This document shows, in pieces, positions 4,551 through 57,900 of a stretch of DNA of 64,000 nucleotides; position 1 is the stretch's first letter, and every line of letters begins with the position of its first letter. The stretch is from Leishmania martiniquensis (Eukaryota > Euglenozoa > Kinetoplastea > Trypanosomatida > Trypanosomatidae): assembly GCF_017916325.1 (NCBI RefSeq), contig NC_090142.1, positions 131,501 to 195,500 of the forward strand. The letters are read 5' to 3'. A program made the position numbers and the translations under genes. The notes beneath the pieces were generated by a model. It was given only the letters and a program-made list of their open reading frames with translations, ran no database searches and was not told the DNA's origin.

Positions 4551-6953
4551 CTACGGCTTGTCCACACCGAGCAGCTCACGGATGGCGTCGCCGTTCTTAT
4601 AATTTGCCTCCATAGCTCGCAGCTCCTCGCGGCTATGGCGCAGCCCCGCCCACTTCGACTCCACCGCCTTCATTTCGTGGTCCACCAGTCGTCCCTGTTG
4701 AGAGAGGTAGGTGCTCTCGTGCGCCAGACCAATCAGGCGGGCCGTGACGAAGGGGTGGACAGCCGTGGCCGAGAGAGGAGCAGCAGCGGCGCCGTCGCTT
4801 GCTGCGGTGGCTGCTGGAGTATCGGCTCCCGTAGTGGCCACATCGGTCACCGAGGGGGCAGTCGGAGAGGGGTCCGCATCGGCGGCCCCTGCAGTAGGCG
4901 CGTCTTCCAGCAGGCCCGGCGTGGGGAGCGGTTTCTCAGCCTCCTCTGCCGCGCTGGACGTGGGCGGTTGGGTCTGCGTGTGCCGCACCACGACACTCTT
5001 CAGCACCGGATCCACCTCTGCTTTCCGTTCTGCCTCCATGTCGGACACATACTTCAGGTACAGCTGAACCTCATCCAGCTCGCGCGTGACGTCAGCCAGG
5101 CGCTGCTCGTGCATGGCGACGTCGGGGTCCATGGTGTCACTCGCGCGCTCTTGATTTAGCAGAGTGCTGCGCTGCAGGAGTCGCATGCGGTCTGCCTGCG
5201 TGCATCGCTTCGCCCTGGCCTCCTCCGCCGCGTACACAAATTGCTCATAGTAGCCCACGTATTCCTCTGCCTCACGTTGGGCGAGGTCAGCGTCGCTCTC
5301 CTCAACTGCCGCGAGGTGCTTCAGTAGCTTCGGCACGCACGCGTCCACGTACTTGCCGAACACATCACCAGCCTGATTCCAACGTGACAGCACATCCTCG
5401 CAGTGCACCAGGCAGTCGAGGTGAGCTGACTGGGCCTGCAGCTGTGCTTGCACCGCCGCCGCCTCCTTGGCGCGCTGCTCGCGCTGCGACATGCACTGCT
5501 GCGAGTATCGACTGCGCTCACGTGCATTTTCAGCAAGCTTCGCGAGCAACACGCCAACCTCCTCCCACAGCGCACGCGCGGTCTTGTCCATCTCGCCCAG
5601 GCGGGCCCTCATGCTCCCGTCCGCCGCGATCTCCGCTGCCTGCATGGCGGCCAACTGCTCCTCCGCCTGCTGAATGCTGTCCGACAGGAGGCAAACATCG
5701 TGCTGCACACTGGACAGCGCCTCCTTCGAGTACTTCTGCACTGCCTGCACCGCCTGATGGCTGTCGTCGATGAGGTTCACCACATCACGGCGAAAGTCCC
5801 GAGTGTCGTCCGAGTGCAGCGAGACGAGCGTCATGCGGGCCTTGTACAGCAGCAGGAGGTCGTTGGAGAGGTCTACCTGGGCATGCAGGTTACGCAAAGC
5901 TTTGAGAGGGTCGCCGGTGTCGATGGCCTCTTCCTTCTCACGCTTCACCATCTGCACGCGGGCCTGCAAGTCGCGGAGCGCCACCTCAGACTTTTTCAGC
6001 TCCCGCTGCGCGTAGTCGCCAGGGTTGTAATGCAGGCGCTCGTGCAGCGCGACGGCGGCGCGGGAGGGGCAAACGACCCCCTCCCTGTCCTCAGCCTCCG
6101 CTGCCTCGGCGGACACCACCGCCCCGGTCTGTTCAGCTCGGTCTGCCGCGCCATCCTCTTGAGCTGCCGCTGGCTTCCCCTGCGGCTTCTCGTCACGCAC
6201 CGCCACCTCGCCCTCTCCGAACCACACCAGTTCGCTCAGCTTATCCAGCAAGCTCAGCTGCGTCAGGTGCGTGTCCAACGGCGCCAGCAGGTACGGCGAT
6301 CGTAGCAGGTCGTCCAGCGCGCGCCGCATCGTGTCCATCGGGATCACAGGCATCTGAGTCATGGAGTCTGTCTCCCGCACCGGTGTGCGTAGCGCGTGCT
6401 CCTCCACCACATCGGCAGGCGTGAGTGGCATGTCCTCGGTGCACCGGTAAGCGTCGAGGTACGAATGCAGGCTTTCCACGGCGCGCGTGTTGTGCACAGC
6501 GCTCTCCATCGGAAGTTCTGACAGCAGTGCCTGAATCTCCTCCATGCGGGCGCACCAGCGGTTGTTGAGCGACTCGACCTTCTCCCGCAGCTCCGCATTC
6601 AAGGCGGCTTGCTGGCAGCCATGGTACATCAGAGACGCGTGCTCTATTGGGGGTTCCAGTCGCGCTGCGTCAAGGGCCTCTTTCGAGCTTCGATCGGTGA
6701 TCGGCAGCAGCTTCTGCACCGCTGTCGAGTTCGCCAGGGATGATGCAGCGCTGCCGTCCGCGAAGTAAGTGCGCCCCGCTGCCGTGCGCAAGAGTGATAC
6801 GGGTTGATCGCTGTCGCTGGCTCGCAAGTCATCGTAGCCGACATGGGAGCGCAGTATCGTCAGAGCATCTTTCGGCAGCTGCGGGGCGAGCGGCTTCGCT
6901 CGGTACCCGCTGTGCGGCAAGCTTGTCGCATACGGGCGCCTGTCTGGATACAT
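4551..6953 (-). CDS. Paraflagellar rod family protein
   Basis: Protein of 800 residues starting at the ATG at 6953 (MYPDRRPYATSL); an AG after a CT tract lies 17 bases upstream, whereas the longer frame runs into CT-repeat DNA. Residues about 300-650 are a long alpha-helical coiled-coil region with the flagellar rod domain signature (LHYNPGDYAQRELKKSE; DPLKALRNLHAQVDLSNDLL; DDTRDFRRDVVNLIDDSHQA; KYSKEALSSVQHDVCLLSDS). Known: proteins of this family build or associate with the paraflagellar rod alongside the axoneme. The C-terminal about 120 residues add an Ala/Thr/Pro-rich linker and a final helix. It is longer than the major rod proteins PFR1 and PFR2 (about 600 residues), so it is more likely a minor rod component than either main subunit. 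Confidence 0.86.
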   Translation of the reverse strand: MYPDRRPYATSLPHSGYRAKPLAPQLPKDALTILRSHVGYDDLRASDSDQPVSLLRTAAGRTYFADGSAASSLANSTAVQKLLPITDRSSKEALDAARLEPPIEHASLMYHGCQQAALNAELREKVESLNNRWCARMEEIQALLSELPMESAVHNTRAVESLHSYLDAYRCTEDMPLTPADVVEEHALRTPVRETDSMTQMPVIPMDTMRRALDDLLRSPYLLAPLDTHLTQLSLLDKLSELVWFGEGEVAVRDEKPQGKPAAAQEDGAADRAEQTGAVVSAEAAEAEDREGVVCPSRAAVALHERLHYNPGDYAQRELKKSEVALRDLQARVQMVKREKEEAIDTGDPLKALRNLHAQVDLSNDLLLLYKARMTLVSLHSDDTRDFRRDVVNLIDDSHQAVQAVQKYSKEALSSVQHDVCLLSDSIQQAEEQLAAMQAAEIAADGSMRARLGEMDKTARALWEEVGVLLAKLAENARERSRYSQQCMSQREQRAKEAAAVQAQLQAQSAHLDCLVHCEDVLSRWNQAGDVFGKYVDACVPKLLKHLAAVEESDADLAQREAEEYVGYYEQFVYAAEEARAKRCTQADRMRLLQRSTLLNQERASDTMDPDVAMHEQRLADVTRELDEVQLYLKYVSDMEAERKAEVDPVLKSVVVRHTQTQPPTSSAAEEAEKPLPTPGLLEDAPTAGAADADPSPTAPSVTDVATTGADTPAATAASDGAAAAPLSATAVHPFVTARLIGLAHESTYLSQQGRLVDHEMKAVESKWAGLRHSREELRAMEANYKNGDAIRELLGVDKP

Positions 6954-8353
6954 GGGGCTTACCTGGTGGCTAACAAGGAGCGTGGGAAGTGAGCGCCGGT
7001 ATCGTCGAGTGAAAGAGAGAGAGAGGAGGGGGCGAAGGCGAGTGTGATGCGTATTTGGCCGGTTCCACAATGTTGTGAGCCTCTTTTGCCTCTCGTGTGT
7101 GTTTATGTGTGTGTGTGCGAAGAGCGGCGCTGCTGTCGAGGGAGGCCGACAGGCCATATGCGCACGCGTTTCGGTTGAGTGTAACAGACCAAAAGAAGAA
7201 AAGTAATCGCACCAGAGACGTGGAGTGGGCGGAGCGCTCGAGAGAGAGGGGAGAGGGGCGGGGGGTGAGGAGAGGGGGCACTGTCGCCATCATAGCAGCG
7301 TTGGTGAGGCAAAAGAGAGGCGCCGAATGTGCCTGCACTCCTTTCCCCATCACACACACACACACTTCTTGTCATCTCCGCTACCGTGCACCTGCGGAGG
7401 TGGTAAATGGGAAAAAAAACGAAAAAAAAGAAGGGGTCCGCCCCCCCCTCCGCACCGCAGCGACGCCGTGCCGAGGGGAAGGAGGCTTCACGGGTGACCG
7501 GTGCAGGCGAACGCGTGCGCCTGACTAAGGTCAGTGAGGGGAAGTGCGAATCGTATGGAAAGGCAAAAGAAAAGGGGCACATCAGAGGCGCATGCCGGTG
7601 ATGCCGCGCACGTCTCAGAGCTCCCCACCCCACAGCACAACGCGCGCGCACACCATTACCCCGTTGCCTTTCTTCAAACGACTCGGTCGGTGAGCGCGCA
7701 CCAGCCGCCGCATCACAGCGATCGCTGCCTCTGCCCCTGCCCGATGCGCTTCAGCTTTACTCGTACCGCCGGTTGCCTCCCGTCGAACGGCATCATAACT
7801 ACGACAGTGAGAATAGAGAGCGCCGGATGGGGATGGGCGGCGACTACATACATACTTGCAAGACCAAGAAGAGAGAGCGGGAGCCCGACCCTGCGTCTCC
7901 TCCCCGCCCCCACAGACAGACGCGCACACACACACACACACCGGCGCGCACACACGCATGCGCGTGCGGCAACGGTAAGTTGAAATATATATATGTGTGT
8001 GTGTGTGTGCATGTGCACGCGGCCACGCCCACGCGCGGACGCCTTGACGAGTTGAAAGCGAGCTGTAGCCATGTATGGTACATCACTTGCAGGAATCCCT
8101 GCGTATGTGTGTGTTTGTGTGTGTGTCTCGGCTTCCTCCTCAGATAGCTCCCCCCCTATTCTTGTTGCCGCCATCATCGCCTCACGCATGTGCGGAGGCA
8201 GGAACACGGCCAAGGATGGAGAGAGACAGAGAAACGAAAAGCGATGCTCGACGGTGCACAACAACGAATAGCGTGTGCGTGCGAGAGGGGAGAGAGAGCA
8301 GCAGCACCACCACCACTTGCCCGAATAAGTGTCTCGCGGGCGTTGCGCATTCA
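6954..8353. other. Intergenic spacer with compound microsatellites
   Basis: No gene seen. It contains A-rich runs at about 7411-7431, an AC run at about 7922-7942 and a TA run passing directly into a TG run at about 7986-8010. Frames crossing it encode CVCV and HTHT strings, the mark of CA/GT repeats rather than proteins. Confidence 0.65.
6970..7035 (-). promoter_or_regulatory. Predicted spliced-leader acceptor for the PFR-family gene
   Basis: On the minus strand a CT-rich tract at about 7035-7008 is followed by the first AG at 6971-6970, with another AG at 6965-6964 closer to the ATG at 6953. Either gives a very short 5' untranslated region. Confidence 0.5.
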
Positions 8354-12509: not shown

Positions 12510-14945
12510 TCATCGCTCCTCCGCCGGCCACCCCGCCGTGTACCGCTCCTCGTCACCAGTAGCAGCGTACAAGACAGACGACACGGTGTCGCGCAGCACA
12601 AACCTGCGCACGACAATGGCACCGCCGCAGCCAACCAAGAAGCACCAGTCATTCAGCCGCTGGTAGTAGTAGTAGGGGAGAGACCCCAGCACGGCGAGGA
12701 GCACGTTGGATGGCGCACTGTCAGCAGACGGCGGCACCCCATCGAGCGGGGATGCTACGGCTCCTGGCAGAGAAGAGCGCAGCATAACCAACTGCCCAAC
12801 GAAATACACCCCGATCATCATCGAGAGGCCGATGGCGATCGTCTCTGGCCGGCTGATGGCGGACCCGCTGAAGGACATGGTCACGTGAAAGAGCGCCAAG
12901 AGCGCTCCGCGGACCGAATTCATGACCATCCACCCATTCACCACGAGCGCCAGCGCCAGGATGACGTGTGTGCTGACCTCGACGGCGGTCACGGAGAAGG
13001 AAGTGCCACCCTTGGCGCCTCGCCGGCGCAAGATGAACGCGTTCTCGAGCAGCGTTACCGCCTGCGTGACGGGGTCTCGAGTGGACGCCTTGAATAGCCA
13101 CAGACTCGCCACCGTCAGGCCGATCTTGATGGCCGAGTAGGCTGCCATAAACACCCCGAGGCCTGCGTACCACCGACCCACCCATGTCGCCCCGCGCTGT
13201 GCTTCACGCAGCATGCCCTCCACCTCGTAAAGCTGCAGATACATCGATAGGCCGAGGTAGTGCGACGCCGCGGACTCGTCGCGGAGCTTTTGGATGCGCG
13301 CCGCGGCCCACTGGCGGGAGAGGGCAGGGCTGCTGATGGATGAGGTCCGGCTCGTGGTGGAGGCGCAGCCACCATGCAAGCTGCCTGACGCACGACTCAC
13401 CATCATCTGGGCAGCGCTAGAGAGCTTCTGGCGAAGCCACCCGACAGCGCCGGGGGAGCTGTGCTGATGTGGTATGTGCACGGGCGCTGACAGATGGTCG
13501 AGACCGGCGGACTGCCACAAATCGCTGCCACCCGGTAGTCCCCCTTGGGTAGAGCAGCCGATGTGGTTCGAGCCTGGATAGAGGGTGTGATCGGGGGCCC
13601 GCAGGCCATCGCCTCGACCTATACTGGGCACAACAGGGGCCTGCCGTGACGGAGACAAGGAGTACCCGCGCTGCGGACTCGGTGAGACCGCAGAGGAAAA
13701 GGCCGGTGAGGCCCACTCTTCATGCAGCACGCCGTATTGCAGGGCAGCGATCTGGCGCTGCGCTGTCCCGTAGCCGTTTAGCACGTGGCACAGTTTCTTA
13801 TTGAAGTTCCGCTGCGCCTTCCGCAACTCGTCCTCATGTCCGCGCCAGTACGTGTAGGGCGCCAAGAATGCGTACGGGGAGGTGATAGCGGCGTAGCCGG
13901 ACAAGAGGCCAATCATCGCCACGCCAACGGTCGCGACGCGCGAGGCCACAGCGCACACAAAGGCGCGCAAGTCTTTCACAGTGGACGTCATTGAGTGCAA
14001 GGTGTTAGGAACTGAGAACTGCCGCTGCGACTGATGTTGCGACTGCGCCTGTTCGGCTGCTTCGCCGCTTTCACCAGGCATCTCGGCCTTCGCGCCTGCG
14101 ACGGGTTCGACGACGCGGCCGGCTGCTGAGTCACCACCGGCAGTCAGGGTGCCTTTCGTTTTGATCTCTCTTGGCACGTTCAGAATGGCCGTGCTTCTCT
14201 GCAGTTGCGTGTATACTCGCCGCGCCGCTGACATGGAGGTCGTCCGCACCAAACGCACATCGAAACGCCGCGTACGCGCCGCCCACATCCCGGTGCAGAT
14301 GAGTGACACCACCATCGTCCACAACAAGCCCCGGCGCAGCCGTCTACACATGCCGCGCGAACGTTTGCCCTCTTCCCAATCGCGCTGATAAGAAGAGCGC
14401 GACTTGAGCTGCGGCCGGCTGCGGTGCGAAAAACACGCACTGAGACTTCGACACCCGCTTGCGCTTCTCGAAGGTCTCCGAAGGGTGCTGTAGCGTCTGC
14501 CAGAAACGTGGCGGTTGCTGCCACGGGCGAGCGCGTGACGCAGGCATGAGATCACGCAAACGGCAGGGCAGGCGATCAGCACCGTGCTCAGCAGCAGCAG
14601 CAGCAGCCAAGTGAAGGACTGCGCGCCAACCTGCATGCGCGGTTGAAGCAGAAAAAGCAGCGCCGGCCTTCGCTGCGCCCTGCCCCCATCCGCTTCCGCA
14701 GCGCTGTTTGCACTGCCCTCGGTAACCGCGGTATCGGCGGCGACGGCGGCGGACGGGTGCAGCGACACCTCTGCCATGTCGACCAGGACGGCGCTGAAGA
14801 GCGACAGTGACAGCGCAAACGTGCTGGCGAAGCAGCACTGCGCCGCACTGGCGTCGCCCATCGGCTGAACCACAACAAGACGCATAAGAAGCTTGCCAAC
14901 ATAGAAGAAGACGGCGTAGCTCGCCACCACGTACAAGAGGCTCAT
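12510..14945 (-). CDS. GPHR: Golgi pH regulator (GPHR/GPR89) family membrane protein
   Basis: Protein of 811 residues, ATG at 14945, with an AG after a CT tract 41 bases upstream. The N-terminus has hydrophobic segments at about 1-26, 38-60, 110-135 and 200-220. The GPHR core follows: a segment near 338 (MIGLLSGYAAITSPYAFLAPY) matches the family's LSGYGAVxxPY motif; a helical loop at about 540-575; then AYSAIKIGLTVASLW and DPVTQAVTLLENAF, VMNSVRGALLALFHV, MIGVYFVGQLVMLRSSLP and YYYQRLNDWCFLVG in family order up to about 790. Known: GPHR homologues are multi-pass proteins of the Golgi and ER, implicated in anion conductance that supports luminal acidification; plant members were also proposed as abscisic acid receptors. 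Odd: about 200 extra Ser/Arg-rich residues between the N-terminal segments and the core, and another insertion at about 400-530. Confidence 0.86.
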   Translation of the reverse strand: MSLLYVVASYAVFFYVGKLLMRLVVVQPMGDASAAQCCFASTFALSLSLFSAVLVDMAEVSLHPSAAVAADTAVTEGSANSAAEADGGRAQRRPALLFLLQPRMQVGAQSFTWLLLLLLSTVLIACPAVCVISCLRHALARGSNRHVSGRRYSTLRRPSRSASGCRSLSACFSHRSRPQLKSRSSYQRDWEEGKRSRGMCRRLRRGLLWTMVVSLICTGMWAARTRRFDVRLVRTTSMSAARRVYTQLQRSTAILNVPREIKTKGTLTAGGDSAAGRVVEPVAGAKAEMPGESGEAAEQAQSQHQSQRQFSVPNTLHSMTSTVKDLRAFVCAVASRVATVGVAMIGLLSGYAAITSPYAFLAPYTYWRGHEDELRKAQRNFNKKLCHVLNGYGTAQRQIAALQYGVLHEEWASPAFSSAVSPSPQRGYSLSPSRQAPVVPSIGRGDGLRAPDHTLYPGSNHIGCSTQGGLPGGSDLWQSAGLDHLSAPVHIPHQHSSPGAVGWLRQKLSSAAQMMVSRASGSLHGGCASTTSRTSSISSPALSRQWAAARIQKLRDESAASHYLGLSMYLQLYEVEGMLREAQRGATWVGRWYAGLGVFMAAYSAIKIGLTVASLWLFKASTRDPVTQAVTLLENAFILRRRGAKGGTSFSVTAVEVSTHVILALALVVNGWMVMNSVRGALLALFHVTMSFSGSAISRPETIAIGLSMMIGVYFVGQLVMLRSSLPGAVASPLDGVPPSADSAPSNVLLAVLGSLPYYYYQRLNDWCFLVGCGGAIVVRRFVLRDTVSSVLYAATGDEERYTAGWPAEER

Positions 14946-19629: not shown

Positions 19630-19997
19630 CTAGTACGGTGTGAAGCTCTCGCTGCGTGGCGCACCAGCAGGCACACCTGCTCCCGGAGCGCGTCCGAAAT
19701 CGCCACCGCCAGTGCCTCCATAGCCGCGACCACCGCGGTAGCCACCACCACCATAGCCACCACCACCATAGCCACGACCACCACCGTAGCCACGACCGCC
19801 GTACCCGCGCCCACCGTACCCACGCCCGCTGCGACCGCCATCGTTGCGCGCATACTGGCAGACGGAGTACAGCTCCGGCGAGACCTCTTGCTTCGCACGC
19901 AGCAGGAGATCGATGAGATCACGTATGGTCTTACTGTTGTCAGATGATGAGACGAAAGAGTAAGCGTCGCCGGCCTTGCCGGCACGACCCGTACGGC
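19630..19997 (-). CDS. DBP2B: DEAD-box RNA helicase DBP2B, exon 2
   Basis: Second coding exon of the helicase whose first exon is at 24594-25998. It starts two bases into a Gly codon at 19997 and completes motif VI (HRIG joined to [14 protein letters not shown]), then the end of the helicase C domain (residues about 470-515), then a tail of tandem [10 protein letters not shown] units and a final ESFTPY before the TAG at 19630-19632. Exon 2 is 368 bases, so the joined coding sequence is 1773 bases (590 residues), divisible by three. The reading frame stays open upstream into the intron as far as about 20256, but the sequence there has no helicase similarity and is Ser/Cys-rich. The Gly-Tyr-Arg tail is typical of RNA-binding, arginine-methylated helicase tails. 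Confidence 0.93.
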
Positions 19998-20041
19998 CTG
20001 CACACATCGGCAGAGGCATACATGTACACAGAGAGAGAGAC

Positions 20042-20045
20042 GTTA
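20042..20045 (-). promoter_or_regulatory. Candidate branch point (TAAC) of the helicase intron
   Basis: On the minus strand GCGCGTAACG lies about 45 bases before the acceptor AG and is followed at once by a CT repeat and an AG-free stretch to the acceptor. It resembles the last four bases of the yeast branch sequence; predicted only. Confidence 0.4.
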
Positions 20046-22096
20046 CGCGCCCATACACGAAGACGCAGACGGGCGAAATGGAAGGAGAGGCCGGGCAGAG
20101 AGAACGCGCGAGAGAGAGGGGTGCACGTGCCCATTCATACATGAGCGGATGCGCCATTTGGTATGGGAAGCGGTTTTCCCACGTGTCATTTTCGGGCACA
20201 CACACACGCACGTAGGCACGTGAGAGCGCAGGAAGAGAGCGAGAGAGGAGAAGCACGCCGGCAAGCAGAGCGGCAGGGAGAGAGGAGGATAGGCGGATAG
20301 GGTGATGATGATGTTGGTGAGAGAGGGGAGGAGGAGATGTGCGAGAGAGGAGAGAGAGCGAGAGAGTGGAGACGTGTCTTTACCCGCGAAGGCGGGAGGG
20401 AGAGAGTGTAACGGACATGGGTTGTGGAAGTTTGTCCATCGATGTGTGCGTGTGTGCATGTGCATCTCATCAGCTGATGTTATCGTGCAAAAAGACATAA
20501 CTAAAAAAAGTAAAGGTCGAAAAAATCTCAGCAAAGGCGTGAAGAGAGGGGAGGGTGACGGAGGGAGGGGGAGGGGGGAGGGGAGGGGAGCGTTGGCAGC
20601 AGATGGGTCGGCTAAGAGGGGGAAGAGGAGAGGGGGGGAGGAGGAGAGGGGGAGTCTCATCACGTGTGGCCGCGCTGGTGGGTTCGCCGAGTACACAGCG
20701 AGGCCCCTCATAGCACACACAGAGAGAGAGACGAGTGCAGTGGAGCCATGAAGGGCGGGCAGTGGGGGGGGGCTTACGAATAGATGGACGACGTGTACGT
20801 CTGATCACATGGTGGCACTCAGCTACATGCGTGCACCCAGATACAGACATGTGTGTGTGTGTGTGTGTCCTGACGCGTTTGACCTGCGAAATACGCATGC
20901 ACGCGCGTTTGTGGGCTAAGTGGGCCCCGCCACGTGCGTGTCTGCGCATGCGTGTCCAGTTGTCGTGTGCAGGGCCTCTCTCTATCTGTGTGCGTGCGTG
21001 TGTTCTCCTCTGCCCAGCCTCTCACCTCGTCCTGCAGGTGGCGCCTCCAGCTCTCCATTTTTCGCTCACCCTCACCGCCGCCAGCCCCCCCCCACACACA
21101 CACACGACGCTCTCCTGAGCACCAAGTGGATGCACCCCACCCCATCATCGCGCTTCTTCTGCACTTGTGTACACAAAGCGCAGGGGACGATGTGTACTGC
21201 GCGAAGAAGAGCACGAGGTGGGCATCGCACCCGCTGGGAATGAGGGAGGCCGCGCTTGGGAAGAGAGAGGGAGCGAGTGCGTCTCGGCAGGGGGGGTGGA
21301 GGATATCGTCCAGCGCATCCTTCACGTCTTCGGCAAACATCCGTGAACGTTCGCCAACACGCGCGAAGCACAAAGGACGCGGAGGGGGAGAGGGGAGGGG
21401 AAGAGCGGCAGACTCGGACCCGCATGAACCAGCAACACTCCTGCAACAGTCCCACCACATACGCACAGACAGACAGACGTGCACACCTACTCGACCATGC
21501 AGAGGTGCGCGCAGGTGCACGACTGCACCAAGGCACACGCATACGCAGAAACAGGCACGCATGGGACAATGCTCCTACGCCGGTGGAGAGCGTTGCACAC
21601 CTTCCGTGACGTGAACAACGGGCTACGAAGATACAGAGTTGAATGCTGAGAGACGTACCCCAGCACGCCCATGGTCGTGCAGCGCGTCCGCCACCTGTTG
21701 CACTACTTACCTCCGAACCGGCTGAGCATGGCACGCATATACGTATGTATGGGCGCTCGTTGTCCGACGCTTAGAAAGGGGAGCGAAAGAGTCGTCAACA
21801 TCCTCCCGCACGTGCGTCACTGCATACGCGTGATTGCAGGGGGAGGGGCGGGGAAGAAGAGAAGGCGCGACGCTGTCGGACAGACACAGACACACACACA
21901 CACGTCGGCACACACATACACAAGCATGCATGCATGCATGGAAGCCCACGTATGGCATCCGTGTGCGCATCTCCACCAGCGCAACGACGTCCCGCCCACC
22001 GTTTCATGAAAGAGAGGAGGATGAGCATAGGAATCGGTGGTGGCGTGAACATCTGCGTGTATCTGACGTGCGCGTCGCTCAATCTTTTGCTTTCTT

Positions 22097-22137
22097 CCGG
22101 CCGCCCCACTCCATTCCGGCCGCCCCACTCCATTCCG
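22097..22137. repeat. Two tandem copies of a 19-base unit inside the intron
   Basis: The unit CCGGCCGCCCCACTCCATT occurs at 22097-22115 and again at 22116-22134, with the first bases of a third copy. It lies in the middle of the helicase intron and codes for nothing recognisable. Confidence 0.85.
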
Positions 22138-24237
22138 CCCGCCCGCGCACCCGCTCTTCGGCTCGGCTGTGCCCGACTAGCCCTCCCATTTCTGTCTCGA
22201 TGGCTGAGAGGGGAGAGAGGGGGGAAGGGGCGCTCTTCGGCAGGCCGATGCACACACACACGGATAGACCGACTACAGGGCATCAGACACGTTTCCCACG
22301 CATGCGTGTGCGCAGACAACGAGCGCGGTACAGCAAAGGTGCGCCGCTCGCACACGTGAGACATCCATCGCAGACTTGCGTTCATGCAACCCCATCACAC
22401 GCACACGCAGAGAGCTCGCGCGCGCATGCATCCTTGATGCTACCATTGTTGTTGTGTTTCGCGTGCGAGAGGGGAGATGCATGCACGCAAGCCGTCTGGT
22501 CCACGCATACGTGCCGTCACACAATCGCCCGCTACGTCCGCGCCCATAGTGCCGGTCTTCTGCATTCCAGGCGGTGTCTACTCTCTTCTCGAGTGCGTGC
22601 TGAGCCGCCGAGGCACGCACGGTCTGAAGTCCTACGCACACACACTCACTTCGCAAGAGAGAAAGAGAGGGAGGCGATGGTCAATGTCCGGCAACATGAA
22701 ATTCCACGCACGAGCACGTCTCGCCACCTCGCGGGCATGAGGTAAGGGGAGGGGTTAAAGTGAGAGCAGGAGAGAGCGATATTGCAGGGGGAGGGGGAAA
22801 GGCAGTCGAGGATGTCACCGTACCATCACGCTACCTCTGCATGCATGTTCCACAAACGTAAACGCACGCACGCATGCGGGGCGCCTATGCATCCCTGACA
22901 CGAGTGCCGACAGATGTGAGAATAAAAACGAGATGAGCAATGAAATGAGAAAAAAAAAAGCAACGGTCGTTCAGCTGATAAGATATCACATACACACGCG
23001 CACGCACGCACACATCGGCAGGGAGAGAGGGGGGAGAGGGGAGGGTTAGGGGAGCTGAAAAGATGAAGCGAAATAAGTGCCGCTCTCCCTGCCCCTCCTC
23101 TCCTCCCGATCCGCTTTGTCTTCACCTTCTTTGTTTCCCACGTCCTTTCCTCGCACATGTTCATCGTCTCTCCCGCTTACATCAGCCGCAGGCAAAGCCA
23201 TTCGCGTCCACCGTTCGTGCTGTGGCCACTCACAGCCCATCTCCCCGCCAGGGTACACTTCACCCCCTTTCCATGGTGACCCTCTTGCGTCACCGTCCAC
23301 CACCACCCCATCCACCACTACCACCGCTATCACCCTCTTCGCTCCCTTCATATGGATTCGTACAGCGCGATGAAGTGTAAGAGCGTTCAAGAGGACGAGA
23401 TCAGCTTCGAGTGCAAGACAGAGAGGGTGGGAGGGAGAGGTCAGAAAGGCAATGGGTGAAGCGCGGAGCCAAAAAGCTCGAGACCGCGCACGCACACAGG
23501 AAGAGCGAAGAGAGGGACGGAGATGGACGGATGCGATGCCGTGCGAAGTGTGTCTGCAGGGACAGACAGACAGAGAGAGAGAGATCGGGACGAGGGCGTA
23601 ACAAAGCGAAGAGGGACGAAGGGAGCGGGGGAGAGGAGGAGGAGGAACGGTCACGTATCACCGGGTTGATTTTTTTCTACGGTATCCATGCGTATGTGTG
23701 AGCGTGTGTGAGCGTGTGTGTATGCGCCTATGCTTGTGCGTGTGCGTGTGTGTGTCAGAGAGAGAGCATAGAGGAAGGCGGGGAACAGGGCGAGCAAGAG
23801 ACGACGTGGCGGTGGGCATGCGAGGAAGTGCGATCCCCCTTACCCAAGACGCCACCACCACTGTATCCTCTTCTCGAAGAGCTTGCCGTTTGGCCTTCAC
23901 TGGCTGCTACAACCCCCTCGCCACTGTTCTCACCCTTTCCCTGCTGTGATAGCGGCATGTACACCACCACCTCTCCAGAAGTGCTCTTCCTTGAATGTTT
24001 CTATGAGTTGTGCGCGCGCACGCGTATCCCGCTGTACTTCGCCCTATTGCCTCTGTGTCCCTCCTGTGCAAGCGCGCACTTGCGATGTGCCGGCGACCGC
24101 ACCACCACCACCTATTTCCCCATCACCTCCCTGCCTGTCTGCCACCTCTTTTCTTACCCCACACTTCAGGAGCTCCTGTTCGCTTTCCTGACATCTCATC
24201 ATCGACCAGCAGCCACCACACACTCAGAGAGAGAGAG

Positions 24238-24272
24238 GCATATATATATATATATGCGTGTGTGTGTGTGCA
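24238..24272. repeat. TA palindrome joined to a TG run, inside the intron
   Basis: A perfect 20-base palindrome, GC flanking (AT)8, at 24238-24257 continues into a GT run to about 24270. The same TA-then-TG arrangement recurs in other spacers of this window (about 7986-8010, 18865-18890, 32917-32941, 37308-37334). Confidence 0.8.
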
Positions 24273-24593
24273 TATCGGCAGGCCTCGGAGAACTGGAGCA
24301 GGCTCGGGAGCGAGATGAAGTGAAGAGCGAGGGGGAGAGGGGAGAGGGGGAGCAAAGGCGGGCACAGCGACAGTCATGCTGCGAGAGCAGCATCAGCCGC
24401 GGCAGCAGCAACGGCACCGGTGTGATGCACTAAAGAGGAGGGAGAGCATTGGCACGCACACATGCACACACACACACACAGGTACACATAGTGCCCATGT
24501 ACACACGCCCGCACACAATCACTCATACGGACAGATACGTAGAGGGGATCGTGGTTAGCGATACCGTGAGAGAGCGGAAGCTCGTCAACATAC

Positions 24594-25998
24594 CAATACG
24601 ATGCACATAATCTTCGATGTTCAGAGGCATATCGTAGTTGACAACTACGTCCAAGTTTTTTATATCGAGGCCACGCGCTGCTACATCGGTAGCGACAAGG
24701 ATCGCGCGCTCATCCTTGCGGAAGCGGTCCAGCACGTAGTCGCGGCTCGACTGTAGCTTATCGCCGTGAATGGCCAGAACTGTCTGCCGCAGCGCGCGGC
24801 CAAGGCGGTCCTGCAGGATGTCGCACGACTTCTTCGTCTTCACAAAGACCAGCACACGCTGCGGACCGACCTGGCGAAGGATTTCTTCCAGCTTCTCCTC
24901 CTTGTGATACCCTTCAACGACAAAGACGTGCTGGCGCACGTCGGCGTTCGCCACAAGCTCCTCCGAGCCGATGTGCACACGCACGAAGTCCTTCTGGAAG
25001 CTGGCCGCGAGGTTGCGGATCTCGCGCGGCCATGTAGCCGAAAACATCAGCGTCTGGCGGTCTGTTCGGATCTGAGAGCAGATCTTTCGAATCTGGTCCT
25101 CAAAGCCCATATCCAGCATGCGATCGGCCTCGTCGAGGGTAAGGTACGTGACGCGTAGCAGATTCGTGCAGTTCATCTCCAGCAGGTCGATCAAGCGACC
25201 GGGCGTTGCGATGCAGACATGTACACCGGCGCGCAGGGCGCGTTGCTGTGGCCCCTTCGGAGTGCCGCCGTACACGCACGTCGTCATAATGCTCGGCACG
25301 CGCGTCAGCGCCTTGCGCGTCTCTGTCTCTATCTGCACCGCCAGCTCGCGGGTCGGGGCGAGGATCAGGGCGATGGGACCGTCGCCAGGCTGCAGGGGAG
25401 GCTGCGCCATAATGTGCAGCGCTGCGGGGATCATGAAGGCCATCGTCTTTCCAGAGCCCGTCTTGGCCACACCGACGATGTCACGTGAGTTGAGTAGGAC
25501 CGGCCAGGAGACGGACTGGATTGGGGTCGGCTTCTGGAAGCCCGCGTCCATGAACGCCTGGTGGATTGCATCTGGGGCAACGAGGTCCGAAAATTCTAGC
25601 ATCGGCTGTGGAACGCGGTCTCCGTAGATGGTGATGCTGTTCTCGCGCAGCCACGCGGCGATCTCCTCCTCGCTGCGCGGCTTCTGCGGCTTGTAAAAGT
25701 TCCACTGTGTCGCCACCTTCTGTACGGCATCCCAGTCAATGCGGTGCAGGTTGGCGCCAAGGCCGCCGTGGCGGTCGTGGTAGCGGTCTCCGCCACGGCT
25801 GCCACCGTAACCACGACCGCCGCTGCCGTAGCTACGGTGGCCACCGCCACCGTAGCCGCCGCCGCTGCCGCGATAGCGATCTCCGTCGCGGCCGCCTCCA
25901 TAGCCGCCACCGTAGCCACCGTCACGGCCGCCGTCGTAGCCGCTGTCACGGCCACCGCCGTCACCACCGTTGCGCGTGGCGTCACCGTAGTCGGACAT
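24594..25998 (-). CDS. DBP2B: DEAD-box RNA helicase DBP2B, exon 1
   Basis: Codes for residues 1-468 and the first base of codon 469 of a 590-residue ATP-dependent RNA helicase of the Dbp2/p68 type. Start ATG at 25998 (MSDYGDATRNGG), 54 bases after a strong trans-splice acceptor. Residues about 10-80 are Gly/Tyr/Arg/Asp-rich. Then the full motif set: Q motif (QKPTPIQSVSWP), AKTGSGKT near 177, PTRELA, TPGRL, DEAD near 287, SAT, VLVFVKTKKSCD, ATDVAARGLD, and HRIG at the exon end. Known: the family unwinds RNA duplexes and remodels RNPs in transcription, splicing and decay. The exon ends with the donor described in the intron entry. Exon 1 alone lacks the arginines of motif VI and could not make an active enzyme. 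Confidence 0.95.
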
Positions 25999-33421: not shown

Positions 33422-36187
33422 TCAGTACGGCATGCTCAACACCTCAATCCCAACGCGCAGGCAGCCACGCACGAGGAAGCCGTCCTGCTCTAACGTGAAG
33501 CGATTGATGAAGCGCAGCGGGCCCCAGCCCTTGCCAATGTAATCCTCCTGCCAGTCCCGCACAACGTGCACAACATCACGCGCCGGGTCCCCGTGGTACA
33601 GGATGACGCGAAAATCAACGCGGTGCTCGTGGCCCTCAGCGAAGAGGTAGACACCGCACTGCTCCGACGCCACAGTGGCATCAATGCCCACATACCACGG
33701 TAGGCTGTGCGAGGTGAAGGGGCGGCTGTAGCACGGCTCCTGCAGCGAAGTCACATCCATGATCACCCAAACAAACCGGTCCACGGCATAGCCGCTGCCC
33801 AGCAGCGTCGCCGCTGGCGAAGGCGCATTAGAGACACGGTTGGGGAGTAGTGCCGCTGCAGCGGCGGCGAGGGCAAAGGTCTGCGCCGCTGCATTGGCGT
33901 TGGCGACGGAGACAGAGACCTGTGGTGTACCTTGGCGCAACGGAGATGGAGCGCGTTGCGGCGTTGGGTCCGCCGGCATCGGCGTGGTGGCCTCGTGTCC
34001 GCTGGGCGCGCGGCGGGGGTCGACCAGCAACATGTCTTCGGTGGCTGCGTGCCGGCGCACGTTGGTCTGCGCTGCTGACGTCGATGAGCGGCGGTGCGGA
34101 TGCTGGTAAGGAAGCGGCGATGGCTGCGAAAGGGCAGGGGACGTGTAGTCAACGGCGGTAGATGCGGCATGGTCGAACAAGCCTCCCACTCGCGGTAGGG
34201 AGCGGCCGCCCATCGTAACCTCCTCCTGCAATGCAGTCATCGACATTGGCGTCATACCACCGCTGCGGATGCCAGTGATGGCGAGAGCTGGCGCCAGCGT
34301 CGCCGCGACCACATCCACACCAGGCACGGCCGCAGCGTTAGCAGCAGCGACATGCAAGGACGACGACGAGACCGACACCGTCGGTTCCGAGTTTCCGGCT
34401 GAGCTGTCTGTGGGCACCGTGGGGGCAGTGTCAGGATAGCTCATGCAGCAGCGCCGCCGCAGCACCTCCACCTCTCCCTGCAAGGCGCGGCACTCCTCCG
34501 TGGACGCGTCGAGTGCCTGCGAGACCAGCAGCAGATGGTCCGCCACACAGCGCTTTAGGTGTCTCGCCATTTCTGCCCGTGGCAGCACCGCCGTACAGCC
34601 ACGCTTCACAAAAGGGCACACGATGATGATGAGCGGGCACTGTCGCAAGTGCTCTGCGGCGTCCGACACGCAGCCGGTCCACGAGCATAGCGGGCGTGTC
34701 CGTCTTGCGCATCCGCTGCCCCTCGTCTCGCCACTGCTGCCCTCCGCCCTTTCCGCTGCTCTGTCGCCTCGTGCATTTTTGGCAGACCCGAGCTGCCACA
34801 GCTTCGACTGCAATGCGGGTGAAAGTGACGCGGGGCAGCAGCACCGTAGCGCGTTGATCTGCCGCTGCGCGCGAGCGTCGGTGCGCAGCAGCTCCACCTG
34901 GATCGGGGTGCGGTCCAGAGGGCACATGGAAGTTGGGTTCGCCTGCATCCACGACTGAAGGCAGCGACGGCAGAAAAGATGGCCGCACGTAGTGGCTGTT
35001 GGTCGCACACACACAGACATGCACACACCACAGACAAGATCGTCTGGCGTCTGGAGAGGGTCTAAGATGACCGCGCCGCCGTCCAGCTCGTACGTGAGGA
35101 GACTGCCGACATCGGTGGCGTTTGTTGCTTCCGTCGACGCCTTGAGCTCTTGAGTCGTAGCGGAAGCGGAGGCGGAGGCGTTGACGACGGTGGAGGGCGA
35201 CGCGCTCCACATCCCTAGAGGCTTGAAGTTGGGGGTCGTTGGCGAAACGGACGCCTGTGGCCGCATGCCAACTGGGCTCGACTGGCTGCCGGAGCCTCGA
35301 AGTGCGTGCGTCGGGTGCGCCGCTGCCGCGCCGGCGAAATTTGCACCTCGAGAGGGCGCAACGGCAGCATCAGGCGCGGTGGTGCTGCGAGTGCTGGGGC
35401 ACGAGCACGAGCGACGCACCGAGGCGCTCGTGGCATCGTTCATGACTGGTGGCGGCATGAGCCCACGGCGGCGCGGCGGATTAGAGAGATCTCCGCGGGT
35501 GGTGGTAGAGGCAACTGCCGGTGCGGGCACGTACAGGTGAAGGGAAGCCAGGGATGACCCCTGCCGAGGCTCCGGCACCGCACACGGCGCGCCGTCGTGT
35601 TTCGGCGTTGCAGGCACGCTTGATGCGCCCGGCGTTGACGCCTGCACGGCCCTTTCGGGGGTATGAGTGGAATAGTGGCCGCCACGGTACGCTTCAGAAA
35701 TGGCGGCGTCGTTTGGTGCCACACGCGTCAAGGCACCGAAGGCGACAGAGGCGTCTCGAAAGGTCGGCGAAGTCCCGCTTGTCGCATCGACAGCCGGCGT
35801 CTGATGACTGAAGTCGGCAGACGGCAACGTGGATATCCCAGGCGGGTGATTCAGTGCCGCGGCAGCGCCCGAAGACGATAGCGAGTTCAGGTGTGAGTAG
35901 CCCGCAAGCTTTTCTGTGCCTCCGACAACGTTTGGCAGCGCATTCGTCCACGCCGACACGCTACAGCCGCCGACACTGGTACGACTGGTACTGTTGCTCG
36001 TACTTTCCAGTGTGTCTGTCGCATTGCTCCCCCTGCGAGGGCGTTGCCGTGAGTTCGCCGTGGCCAAGTCAGCTCGCCTAGTGGGGTCGCTGCCACCGCT
36101 GCTACCGTTGTTACTGGGGGTACTTTCGCGGCGTCGCGGTAAAAAGGATGGCGGAGACGCTGTGTCAGCGCGGCGAACGTCTCGCAT
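33422..36187 (-). CDS. RING, TRAF-type zinc finger and MATH domain protein (TRAF-like E3 ligase candidate)
   Basis: Protein of 921 residues, ATG at 36187. Residues 1-370 are Ser/Thr/Pro low complexity. RING at 386-425: C386, C389, C401, H403, C406, C409, C422 and D425; Asp as last ligand (CPLD) is also seen in TRAF6 (CPVD). Two TRAF-type fingers follow: C501, C506, H513, C517, and C524, C531, H543, C547. A short coiled coil (about 550-580) precedes a low-complexity linker. The C-terminus (about 805-918) fits a MATH/TRAF-C domain: FVWVIMDVTSL, CYSRPF, LPWYVGI, GVYLFAEG, VDFRVILYH, GWGPLRFINRFTLEQDGFLV. Known: such proteins are ubiquitin ligases in which MATH binds the target. Inferred: an E3 ligase with unknown substrate. 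No AG lies between the last pyrimidine tract and the ATG, so the acceptor is probably the AG near 36247. Confidence 0.9.
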   Translation of the reverse strand: MRDVRRADTASPPSFLPRRRESTPSNNGSSGGSDPTRRADLATANSRQRPRRGSNATDTLESTSNSTSRTSVGGCSVSAWTNALPNVVGGTEKLAGYSHLNSLSSSGAAAALNHPPGISTLPSADFSHQTPAVDATSGTSPTFRDASVAFGALTRVAPNDAAISEAYRGGHYSTHTPERAVQASTPGASSVPATPKHDGAPCAVPEPRQGSSLASLHLYVPAPAVASTTTRGDLSNPPRRRGLMPPPVMNDATSASVRRSCSCPSTRSTTAPDAAVAPSRGANFAGAAAAHPTHALRGSGSQSSPVGMRPQASVSPTTPNFKPLGMWSASPSTVVNASASASATTQELKASTEATNATDVGSLLTYELDGGAVILDPLQTPDDLVCGVCMSVCVRPTATTCGHLFCRRCLQSWMQANPTSMCPLDRTPIQVELLRTDARAQRQINALRCCCPASLSPALQSKLWQLGSAKNARGDRAAERAEGSSGETRGSGCARRTRPLCSWTGCVSDAAEHLRQCPLIIIVCPFVKRGCTAVLPRAEMARHLKRCVADHLLLVSQALDASTEECRALQGEVEVLRRRCCMSYPDTAPTVPTDSSAGNSEPTVSVSSSSLHVAAANAAAVPGVDVVAATLAPALAITGIRSGGMTPMSMTALQEEVTMGGRSLPRVGGLFDHAASTAVDYTSPALSQPSPLPYQHPHRRSSTSAAQTNVRRHAATEDMLLVDPRRAPSGHEATTPMPADPTPQRAPSPLRQGTPQVSVSVANANAAAQTFALAAAAAALLPNRVSNAPSPAATLLGSGYAVDRFVWVIMDVTSLQEPCYSRPFTSHSLPWYVGIDATVASEQCGVYLFAEGHEHRVDFRVILYHGDPARDVVHVVRDWQEDYIGKGWGPLRFINRFTLEQDGFLVRGCLRVGIEVLSMPY

Positions 36188-37505
36188 TCGGGGCGGCAAA
36201 GAGCGGAGGAGAGTTGGGGAAGGAGAGGGGGAGAGAGAGAATGCGGGAGCACTGCCGAGAGGGGTGGCGCAATTCACTCTGTGTGTGTGTGTGTGTGCGA
36301 GTGTGTGAGAGAGTGAGTGTGTGATGGGGAGGGGGAGGGGAGAAGAGGATGCGCGCAACCAAAGCGAATGGGAAGAAAGCACACACACACAGAGAGAGTG
36401 AGAGGGAGGGGGAGAGACGAATGGCGCCAATGGGTGAGTCGAGCAACGGCAACAGTGAAGGCGCGTCGTTCCGATGAAGAGACGAGGTGCACCCAGATAG
36501 AGAGACGCTTGCAGACACCTGTACACCGAGAGAGAGACAAACACACACGCACACTTACGCTTTTACACTTGCGCACGACGCGCTGGGAAGATGCGACCTC
36601 GCTCGGCAGACGCGGTGGGATGGGTGGGGGAGAGGGTCAATCGGTGTGCGGCGCGTATGCTTCAAAAAGAGGGAGGCGGCAAACTTTGTCTGCGTGAAGG
36701 GCACGCCTCTCTTGGAATGATGTGGACGTCGCGAGGGCCGAAAAGGTCAGCTGCGCTACAGCGAAAAGAATGCGAAGGGTGGCGGCACTGAGAAGACAAA
36801 AGGGGAGGAGTGATGGAGTCGATGACGCTAACCTCCCGCGCACCTCCCGCCTCTGCACACTAATAGACGTCCGTGCACGTGCGTGGGCCTACCCCTCCTG
36901 CGCCATCCAGTTTTCTGGCACTTCCTCCTCCACGAGTCTATCAATGTCTGTTGGGCAGTGACTCTACCTTCACGGGGCACCCACACATGCGCGCAGAGCA
37001 GCACAACTCCGATGGGATGGGACTGTGCTTCTAGAAAAAAAAAAGCTGAGGGCGATATCAAGAACGGAGAGGTAGGAGAGCAGAAAACGTGCGGGGAGCG
37101 TATGTCTAGAGACGCCGGTAGATGTGACAGTGATGGGGTGGGATGGCGATGGTGCTAAGAGAAGGGGGGGCAGAGAAGACGACAGGATGTGAGAGAGCGT
37201 ATCCACACAGAGAGGCCCTGCGAAGCGGGAAGAGTACATGTGTATGCTAGGCAGTATGAGGAGGGTGGCCCTTCGCATATATGCTAGCACAGACACAGAC
37301 ACACACGCACACGCGCGTATATATATATACATGTATACGGCAATTCTCTGTTGGTCAGTACTCTTCTTGTGGGGGGGGAGATGTACTCGCAGTTGATCTG
37401 GGAGGCACACGCGACAACACGAACGCACAAACGCACAGAGAGAGCGCGAGAGCTCAAAACGGAAAGGGAGTGAAGACAGAGACGGGGGGATACACCAGAA
37501 GAACC
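36188..37505. other. Intergenic spacer
   Basis: No gene seen. It contains a GT run at about 36279-36297, a CA run at about 36380-36391, an A-run at about 37034-37045 and a CA-to-TA compound repeat at about 37292-37334. Frames through it are repeat-derived. Confidence 0.6.
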
Positions 37506-54964: not shown

Positions 54965-57900
54965 GAGAGGAGAGGCGAGCCAGGCACAAGTGTCGCGGAA
55001 AGGATGGGGGGAGGGGACAAGAGTGCGGCGGGGAAGAGGAAGTTCAAAGGACAGGGGTGAGGGCACCCGCCCCCGCTGCCAGCCACGCCTGCCGCCGTCG
55101 ATGAAGATTAAATCCGCACACAGCCACCCACGGGGAAAGAGAGAGAAAGAGATGCACTGCAGCCGCCCTACCACTGCACAGCCAAAAAAGAGTGAGTCCG
55201 AGTACACTTCGCAGGCGATGCGGCTTCCGCTTTCCCCGCTTTTCCCTTCGCTTCCCCTCCTTTGCTTTGGGGTGTGCGCCCACCTGAGGCGTACACCTGC
55301 GCGGGCAGAGGGAGGAAAGGGGGGATGGGAGGGCGGTGCACTGCACTGTGTATACGTGTGCCGCTCTCGCACGCTTCCCCGTTTCCTTTTTTTTTCACTC
55401 CCGGGGCACGCGCACCCGCACGTTAGAGCAAAGAGCAGTGAAGATGAGAGGGGCGGAGTGTGAAAGCGGATGAGGGAAAAGGGGGTCGCGACGGGTTACG
55501 AAAGGCGGCAAGCGAACAACAAAATAAAGAGCGTGAGCAAACAGAAGAAGAGAGACGTAAACAGCGGCGAAAGAGGCAATGATACTCAAAGGCACCGCGG
55601 AGAAGGTGCGCTGGCGGGGCAGAGGTGTGTTTGTATGTGAGATGGGTGTAACGGGTGGAGGGAGTGGTCGTGGCGGCACGAGCGAATGGATGTAAAAAGG
55701 GGGGAGAGTGAGATACACGTAGTGCTGAAAAATGGAAAACGGTAGGCAACAGAGAGAGAGAAGGGAAAAACAGGCGCCGCCACTGCTCTTAAGGGATTCA
55801 CGAGTGCCCCGCACACACCACCACCACCACATCCCAGACCTGCTCCGGCCTTCCACGTTTGCCTGCGGCAGCTATCCCATGCGCACTCCAGCCGCGGAGG
55901 GAGGGAGGGGCACGCGGAGATGGAAGCGAAAGAGCACCGAGTCGAGAAGAAGAAAGGAGCTGGGAAAAGGGCGGTGCGTTGAGGAGAAAGGGAAACGAAG
56001 GGGGGAGCGGGTGAAAGAATAGAGACACAAACACACACAGAAATATATGCAGAAGAAGAGCCGAAATCGATGAAGACGTGAACTATATAGAGAGGGGGGG
56101 TGTCGTCGTCGTCGAGGAATGTGATGCGCGCGACGAAACGACACACACACACACACGCACTCTCTCTCTCTTCCCGTCTCGTGCGCGCGCGTATGCCTTT
56201 CCGTTGGGCGTCGACTGCCTCTGTCACGGCTTTTTTGTCGCTGTTCGGTGCCTTCGCTCCTTTCGTTGTGGGTACGGGGGAAGGGAGAGAGGGGAAGGGG
56301 AAGCGGTGCGGCGACCCGTTCGCGTACTAGCGAGCTCGGGTCTTGCCTCACGCTCCCCCCACCTCCGATACTCCTGCTGCAGCTGCTCCCACTCCGCTCA
56401 CACCCCGCTTGCTACTCGGATGCACGCAGGTGTGTCGGGGTATGAGGTACGAATACCTCCGCGGTAATATGCTGCTGTTGACCCTGACGGAAGGCTGTAT
56501 CCCACCCAGCTCGAGTGCACCACGCTCCCGCTTTTCCTCCTTCCCAACAAGCCCAATCGTAGTCGCAGTAGGGAAGAGAGGAAGAAGCGGGCAGAGGAGA
56601 AAGAAGCGGGGGTGGAGGGGGTGGGGGCCTGCAGACTCTATCTATGCGGATGAGTATCACACCCTTACACAAAAGCGCACGCACACAAATACCAGCTGTC
56701 CCACAGTAGACACGCAGAGAATACCGCGACCGCCACCACGAATGCCAGGGTGCTCCGACTTGGTGTCTATTGCGTGTCTTTGTGGAGTGCGTTTATACGC
56801 AGTGGTGCAGATGCGCGTGCTTGTCTGCGTGCGTGCGTACCTGCACGAATGGAACGATCGAGCGGGAAGGTAGTCGGGATGTGAGGTGGGAGAGGGAAAG
56901 CGCCGTGTGCGGGCGACGTGCAAGAACGGGGGGTCCGAGACACATACAAGCGCCCAAAAAAGTTGGGCAAGGACGAAAAAAAAAAAAGAGCGGTGGCCAA
57001 GCAGAGTTGTAAGAGGCCATGAGCACATTGGTGTGGAGAGGCGAGAGATATCACCGCATGCTCCCATAAGCGCGTGAAAGCGAACTCTTTCTTTGCATGA
57101 CCGCACGCATGAAGAAGGGGAGCCGTCCTTGAACGCTACTGCGCTACAGCAAGCATGGCCTTCTGCGCGCACTGATAGTGTATATTGGCGCCGCACTAAG
57201 CTCGCAATCAGCATATAGAAGTCCTCGACAGAGGCAGCGTGAAAACCGGTATTCTTCTCTTTTTCTGTCGGAAGCCGCTACCCGTTCGGCACCGTGTCAC
57301 AGCTGCAGCCGCGACAACTGTCCCTGATGCGGATGAGTGTCGCTGCCCTGTCGCTGACGTCCGTCTCAGTCAGCTGCGCATCGCTACGCCCACCGCATTC
57401 ATATCCGCAGCTGCTCTGCTCCTTCCCTTTCTCTTTTTCCCCACTTTCGACCTCTCCCCCTCTCCCTCACCTGTCATATGTGCGCGCACACACCTTTACA
57501 GACGTTCATTCTACGCGCCCGATTGTGCGCGTGTGAAGACAGGTGCTGCTCACCCCCTCTCCCTTCCTCGGCTCTCACCCAGAAGCGAGGACGAAGGAGC
57601 GAAAGAGGTCATCGCTCGCGTGTGCCCAAAAGAGGAGATCCTTCGCGGCCAACTCACGCTGAAGTGAAACGGGAGGGAGGCGCCGCAGATGTGAATAAGT
57701 GCGGAGGAGGTGCGGGCGGATTCATTTCGCTTCCTTCTCCCTCTCTCTTGGGGGTGGTGTGCCCGTTTAGGGTGAAGACCGAAAAAAAAGGGCGGATAAT
57801 TCCCCCGCCGACGCCATCTTCACCCTCGGTGAGGGTGGCAGGAAGAGGCTGAGGCGGTGAAGTCATGAAATGGAGGGGGGCCTGTGCACAAGAGAAACTA

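What the first reader, a model, noticed from the sequence alone, without database searches (positions are those of the whole stretch)
19998..24593. A 4.6 kb cis-intron in a trypanosomatid DEAD-box helicase
Exon 1 stops exactly inside motif VI (HRIG) and 4596 bases later the minus strand resumes in phase with RTGRAG. Donor GTATGT and acceptor CAG restore one 590-residue frame. Trypanosomatids process almost all mRNAs by trans-splicing; poly(A) polymerase and this helicase (DBP2B) are the established cis-spliced genes. Here the intron is more than twice the coding length.
Basis: partly seen in the sequence, partly recalled or inferred. Interest (0 to 1): 0.92.

Follow-up and report, generated by a model that had tools for sequence, protein, structure and literature searches.

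The report
Known long intron in Leishmania helicase
This Leishmania RNA-helicase gene is interrupted by one of the very few true introns known in these parasites; the intron is real and unusually long, but the same intron has already been described in a sister species.

Summary
On the minus strand, DBP2B exon 1 (25998-24594) ends in HRIG, a 4,596-nt GT-AG interval (24593-19998) follows, and exon 2 (19997-19630) resumes in phase with RTGRAG, giving 590 residues that align without a gap across the junction to solved DBP2. Database models of 17 relatives, seven of them named (L. donovani, Leptomonas, T. cruzi, Phytomonas, T. theileri, T. vivax, T. congolense), read HRIG-M at this residue, as expected when a GTATG donor is read through. 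The genome also carries a split PAP gene with a similar donor and a spliced-leader array. The intron is already known: L. donovani HU3 has a 4,470-bp intron there, shown by split RNA-seq reads, and the L. major orthologue is annotated as cis-spliced (PMC6467909, passages). The length in Leishmania is thus in print too. One side observation may deserve a test: the intron's sense strand holds 17 strong polypyrimidine-AG sites (antisense 1; 100 shuffles, mean 0.7), and 31 of 203 other AGs score above the real acceptor. Verdict: real, correctly read, already known.

The parts
24594..25998 (-). DBP2B exon 1, coding part: Gly-rich N-terminus, DEAD domain, Helicase_C up to HRIG
   Evidence: ATG at 25998
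19998..24593 (-). cis-intron, 4,596 nt, GT-AG
   Evidence: published orthologous intron of 4,470 bp in L. donovani
24584..24593 (-). 5' splice site GTATGTTGAC; GTATG[T/G]TGA occurs once in the window
   Evidence: the PAP intron of the same genome, as I placed it, starts GTATGGTGAG
19998..20045 (-). 3' splice region: candidate branch site TAAC (20045-20042), pyrimidine run (20040-20030), acceptor AG (19999-19998), the only AG in the last 90 nt
   Evidence: sequence; the branch site is inferred
19630..19997 (-). DBP2B exon 2, coding part with stop: RTGRAG, end of Helicase_C, Gly-rich C-terminus
20378..24303 (-). stretch holding 17 acceptor-like polypyrimidine-AG sites on the sense strand, each stronger by this measure than the real acceptor
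   Evidence: my own score: at least 18 of 20 pyrimidines, no AG between tract and AG

Best explanation
The interval is a conserved spliceosomal intron in the DBP2B (DDX5/DBP2-type DEAD-box helicase) gene of a Leishmania. The long ORFs around it all run the same way, as in a polycistronic array. The 5' end of the mRNA is made by spliced-leader trans-splicing (inferred); U1 snRNP recognises the extended donor (shown in T. brucei for PAP, with fewer data for the helicase), and the spliceosome joins it to the acceptor 4.6 kb downstream, restoring motif VI, HRIGRTGR (motif name recalled). Without the join the product is a helicase cut off before RTGR.
For: Exact in-phase GT-AG join in a conserved motif; Helicase_C spans it; 17 of the 29 HRIG-bearing sequences among the 31 best hits read HRIG-M at this point, and 10 of the 13 of these that go on read M-L, as GGT-ATG-TT would allow; T. 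brucei, Angomonas and T. melophagium models read on as HRIGRTGRAG; a split PAP gene in the same genome with a similar donor; a 50% identical paralogue on C36 reads HRIGRTGRAG in one open frame; the L. donovani intron has split RNA-seq reads.
Against: No RNA from this genome. No U1 snRNA was found (Rfam U1 at E up to 10; two guessed patterns), though trypanosome U1 is only 75 nt and lacks stem-loop II. The acceptor has a weaker pyrimidine tract than 31 of the other 203 AGs scored in the intron; by longest pyrimidine run, 14 are stronger.
Confidence: 0.97

Rival explanations
1. Two separate genes or a broken gene: exon 1 makes a short helicase and exon 2 is a separate trans-spliced message or a remnant; nothing is spliced in cis.
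For: The sense strand of the interval is rich in trans-splice-like acceptors. In T. brucei, coverage plots show isoforms with spliced leader on DBP2B and RBP20 exon 2. Seventeen database models of relatives run out of exon 1 into the intron or stop there.
Against: Both parts are intact and join within one conserved motif without a gap; junction reads in the L. donovani orthologue; validated intron in T. brucei.
Confidence: 0.02
2. The interval is a late insertion, for instance a mobile element, or an assembly artefact.
For: It is far longer than the PAP intron (815 nt as placed here).
Against: The 4.6-kb sequence has one full match in the genome and eight further matches of 30-58 nt (a search that skips simple repeats); L. 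donovani has 4,470 bp at the orthologous place; relatives across the family share the donor position (inferred from protein models).
Confidence: 0.01
3. The intron is real and also houses a gene (small protein or structured RNA).
For: Length; 34 ATG frames of 50 residues or more on the two strands.
Against: Codon scores of these frames are -0.32 to +0.15 bits per codon, against +0.07 to +0.35 for ten long window ORFs; but 36 frames from four stretches taken as intergenic, which also supplied the background, span -0.38 to +0.36, and exon 2 itself scores -0.02, so the test is weak. No Rfam family at gathering score in the window; in the intron sixteen matches at E up to 1, each far below its gathering score.
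Confidence: 0.1

Closest known systems
DBP2B cis-intron of Leishmania donovani HU3 (LDHU3_07.0430) and L. major (LmjF.07.0340)
   Same: Orthologous gene (this one on contig C7), one intron, kilobase length (4,470 bp in L. donovani)
   Different: 4,596 nt here; probably not L. donovani, since the two published PAP primers have 2 and at least 3 mismatches in this genome
DBP2B intron of Trypanosoma brucei (Tb927.8.1510)
   Same: Same gene; a T. brucei gambiense model reads HRIGRTGRAG (P0007); intron validated (PMC2936537, PMC4041458, passages)
   Different: Its length was not found in the passages read
PAP cis-intron (LDHU3_29.3990; T. brucei Tb927.3.3160)
   Same: Donor with GTATG-TGA as placed here; present in this genome on C29, 815 nt
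   Different: Short (841 nt in L. donovani, 653 in T. brucei, 302 in T. cruzi) and with a strong pyrimidine tract here (20 of 20)
Spliced-leader RNA 5' splice site
   Same: ATTG|GTATG, the same nine bases as the DBP2B exon/intron border
   Different: A trans-splicing donor; 102 places in the genome match the leader pattern with up to 3 mismatches

Membership tests
DBP2B cis-intron of trypanosomatids | Gene is a DDX5/DBP2-type DEAD-box helicase | tested here: met
DBP2B cis-intron of trypanosomatids | Intron inside HRIGRTGR, after the first base of the Gly codon | tested here: met
   the same residue in 17 relatives' models, inferred from protein, no DNA of theirs seen
DBP2B cis-intron of trypanosomatids | GT-AG ends | tested here: met
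DBP2B cis-intron of trypanosomatids | Removed from the RNA in cis | not testable with these tools
   No RNA data for this genome; reported for L. donovani (PMC6467909, passages)
U1-dependent spliceosomal intron | U1 snRNA of the same genome pairs with the donor | tested here: inconclusive
   No U1 gene found with Rfam U1 or two guessed patterns

The most novel reading that the evidence does not exclude
The long Leishmania intron works as a cis/trans switch: its many strong acceptor-like tracts capture the spliced leader or provoke polyadenylation and so set how much full-length DBP2B is made, the rest being exon-1-only messages for a helicase that lacks RTGR of motif VI.
Probability: 0.15. Interest if true: 0.5.

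Novelty: already known. Interest (0 to 1): 0.2.

Why it matters
It adds one more Leishmania with the kilobase-long DBP2B intron. The one open point worth a test is how a spliceosome that works almost wholly in trans-splicing passes 31 AGs with stronger pyrimidine tracts over 4.6 kb to reach a weak cis acceptor. Spliced-leader reads in existing RNA-seq could answer that.

Tried and rejected
Nested gene: codon scoring did not separate intron frames from intergenic ones and gave exon 2 a low score too, whose scored stretch also ran 37 nt past the stop; left open at low weight. Nested RNA: nothing at Rfam gathering score; fifteen weak miRNA-like matches and one snoRNA-like match at E up to 1 were set aside as likely chance in repeat-rich or purine/pyrimidine-rich DNA, which I judged by eye. 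Repeat element: rejected. U1 snRNA: not found; my patterns were guesses from complementarity plus a guessed Sm-like site. Recursive splicing: one AGGTAAGT at 21712, not of the GTATG-TGA type, not pursued. PAP splice sites: of 54 GT/AG pairs in the ranges looked at, 18 fit in phase; I chose one by the GTATG donor and the protein it gives, so its likeness to the DBP2B donor is not independent evidence. Pfam PF04928 hit two places (C14 and C29); C29 was taken because its frame is split and because the L. donovani gene number is 29.3990; the L. donovani reverse primer sits in its exon 2 with 2 mismatches, while the forward primer has 6 or more in that locus on its own strand. RBP20, the third intron gene, was not sought in this genome. 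Conservation of the intron interior was not tested: the genome tool states that G000 has no relatives there, and no other collection was scanned for Leishmania DNA. The T. brucei DBP2B intron length was not found in the passages read. The species was not determined.

Full report
Observation. The minus strand holds a DEAD-box helicase in two pieces. Exon 1 runs from ATG 25998 to 24594 and stops after CGT-ATT-G; 4,596 nt later exon 2 begins at 19997 with GC-CGT-ACG and ends at a stop at 19630-19632. The interval starts GTATGTTGAC and ends GTGTGCAG. The join gives 590 residues. Pfam finds DEAD (residues 158-329) and Helicase_C (366-475, across the join) in the joined protein, and solved DBP2 (8ark) aligns through HRIGRTGRAG with no gap at the join. 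Unspliced, the frame ends at 24523, 71 nt into the interval. Sliding the join by one or two bases gives the same protein, but only this pair of ends is GT-AG.

What organism. The helicase core (residues 81-470) is identical at 382 of 390 positions to a cluster named after L. braziliensis and at 352 of 357 aligned positions to an L. donovani record. It is a Leishmania. It is probably not L. donovani: the forward PAP primer printed for that species has 13 places here with up to 3 mismatches, each with exactly 3 and none of them on C29, where the PAP gene lies, and the reverse primer has 2 mismatches in exon 2 of that gene.

Support from relatives. The protein search scored 7,985 candidates and listed 120. 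Of the 31 best, 29 contain HRIG: twelve go on RTGR (four of these are animal or fungal proteins) and seventeen go on with M. Seven of the seventeen are named (L. donovani, Leptomonas seymouri, T. cruzi, Phytomonas, T. theileri, T. vivax, T. congolense) and ten are not. Four end at that M; of the other thirteen, ten read M-L and one each M-F, M-R and M-Y. This is what a gene caller gets when it reads through G|GTATG, mostly followed by a leucine codon such as TTG. The DNA of these relatives was not seen, so this is inference, but it places the donor at the same codon across the family. T. brucei (P0007), Angomonas (P0004), T. melophagium (P0006) and L. braziliensis (P0001) models read on as HRIGRTGRAG. 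The L. donovani record P0002 looks like a faulty gene model that reads into the intron and rejoins within exon 2.

The other intron of the genome. A PAP gene in two pieces lies on C29. Its exons join with a GTATGGTGAG donor and a CTGCAAAG acceptor, 815 nt apart, to 502 residues. These ends were chosen by me from 18 phase-compatible pairs of 54, partly because of the GTATG donor, so the likeness of the two donors (GTATG-TGA) is suggestive only. GTATG[T/G]TGA occurs once in the window on both strands, plain GTATGT 29 times. A 50% identical paralogue of the helicase on C36 has no break there and reads HRIGRTGRAG. No U1 gene was found.

The inside of the intron. It has one full-length match in the genome, itself, and eight further matches of 30-58 nt. 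No Rfam family reaches its gathering score in the window. Thirty-four ATG frames of at least 50 residues score -0.32 to +0.15 bits per codon; ten long window ORFs score +0.07 to +0.35, and 36 frames from stretches taken as intergenic -0.38 to +0.36, so the test separates poorly. By my own acceptor measure (best pyrimidine count in 20 nt within 60 nt upstream of an AG, no AG between), the sense strand has 17 sites of 18 or more and the antisense strand 1; 100 dinucleotide shuffles of the sense strand gave a mean of 0.71, s.d. 0.85, at most 4. Four stretches taken as intergenic have 2.2 to 6.4 such sites per kb on the same strand and 0.8 to 1.9 on the other, the intron 3.7 and 0.2, and two long ORFs 0 and 0.5 on their own strand. 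So on its sense strand the intron looks like ordinary non-coding sequence of this chromosome, and the excess over shuffles is not special to it. The real acceptor scores 15; 31 of the other 203 AGs scored in the intron are stronger (by longest pyrimidine run, 14). The best site within 700 nt upstream of each of nine window ORFs, DBP2B included, scores 19 or 20, but that is a best-of-many value and the true trans-splice sites are not known. The PAP acceptor as placed scores 20. The 3' end has a candidate branch site TAAC, an 11-nt pyrimidine run and then only the acceptor AG; it is the only AG in the last 90 nt.

Known or new. PMC6467909 (passages) reports for L. [quoted passage not shown] T. 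brucei Tb927.8.1510 is an established intron gene (PMC2936537, passages; PMC4041458, passages); U1C and U1-70K crosslink near its donor (+11 and +22), with few tags, and at the PAP donor with more. Leptomonas seymouri has both introns (PMC4552786, passages). PMC12592628 (passages) names RBP20 as a third cis-spliced gene and reports that loss of DRBD3 lowers split reads of all three; spliced leader on exon 2 was seen for DBP2B and RBP20, with enough reads to count only for RBP20. PMC11613528, the survey behind the third intron, is not held. So the intron, its gene and its great length in Leishmania are in print.

Mechanism. Shown elsewhere: the L. donovani and T. brucei introns are removed in cis; U1 snRNP proteins contact the donor in T. 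brucei; cis- and trans-splicing appear to compete at these genes. Shown here: intact exons, GT-AG ends, phase, a place shared with relatives' models. Inferred: that the intron of this species is spliced in the same way, the branch site, and that acceptor-like tracts inside the intron could compete. That last point is the only part I would call open.

Noticed in passing
window 20378-24303 (-): Seventeen strong polypyrimidine-AG sites on the sense strand of the intron against one on the antisense strand; the real acceptor is weaker than 31 of the other 203 AGs scored.
   Followed up: partly
window 24589-24597 (-) and L030: Exon/intron border ATTG|GTATG is the same over nine bases as that of the spliced-leader RNA.
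   Followed up: no
window 55373-59932: A 4.6-kb stretch between two long minus-strand ORFs; the other twelve gaps between the ORFs that I took as main ones are 0.5-2.2 kb (some of those ORFs are doubtful genes). Frames inside it were scored only as part of the intergenic control.
   Followed up: no
window 21712 (-): A lone AGGTAAGT, a classical metazoan-type donor, within the intron.
   Followed up: no
window 4551-7157, 12510-14945, 33422-36544, 59933-61477 (-): Neighbours with Pfam matches: paraflagellar rod protein, GPHR/ABA_GPCR-type membrane protein, RING finger protein, Sin1 PH domain; the other six of ten ORFs scanned had none.
   Followed up: no
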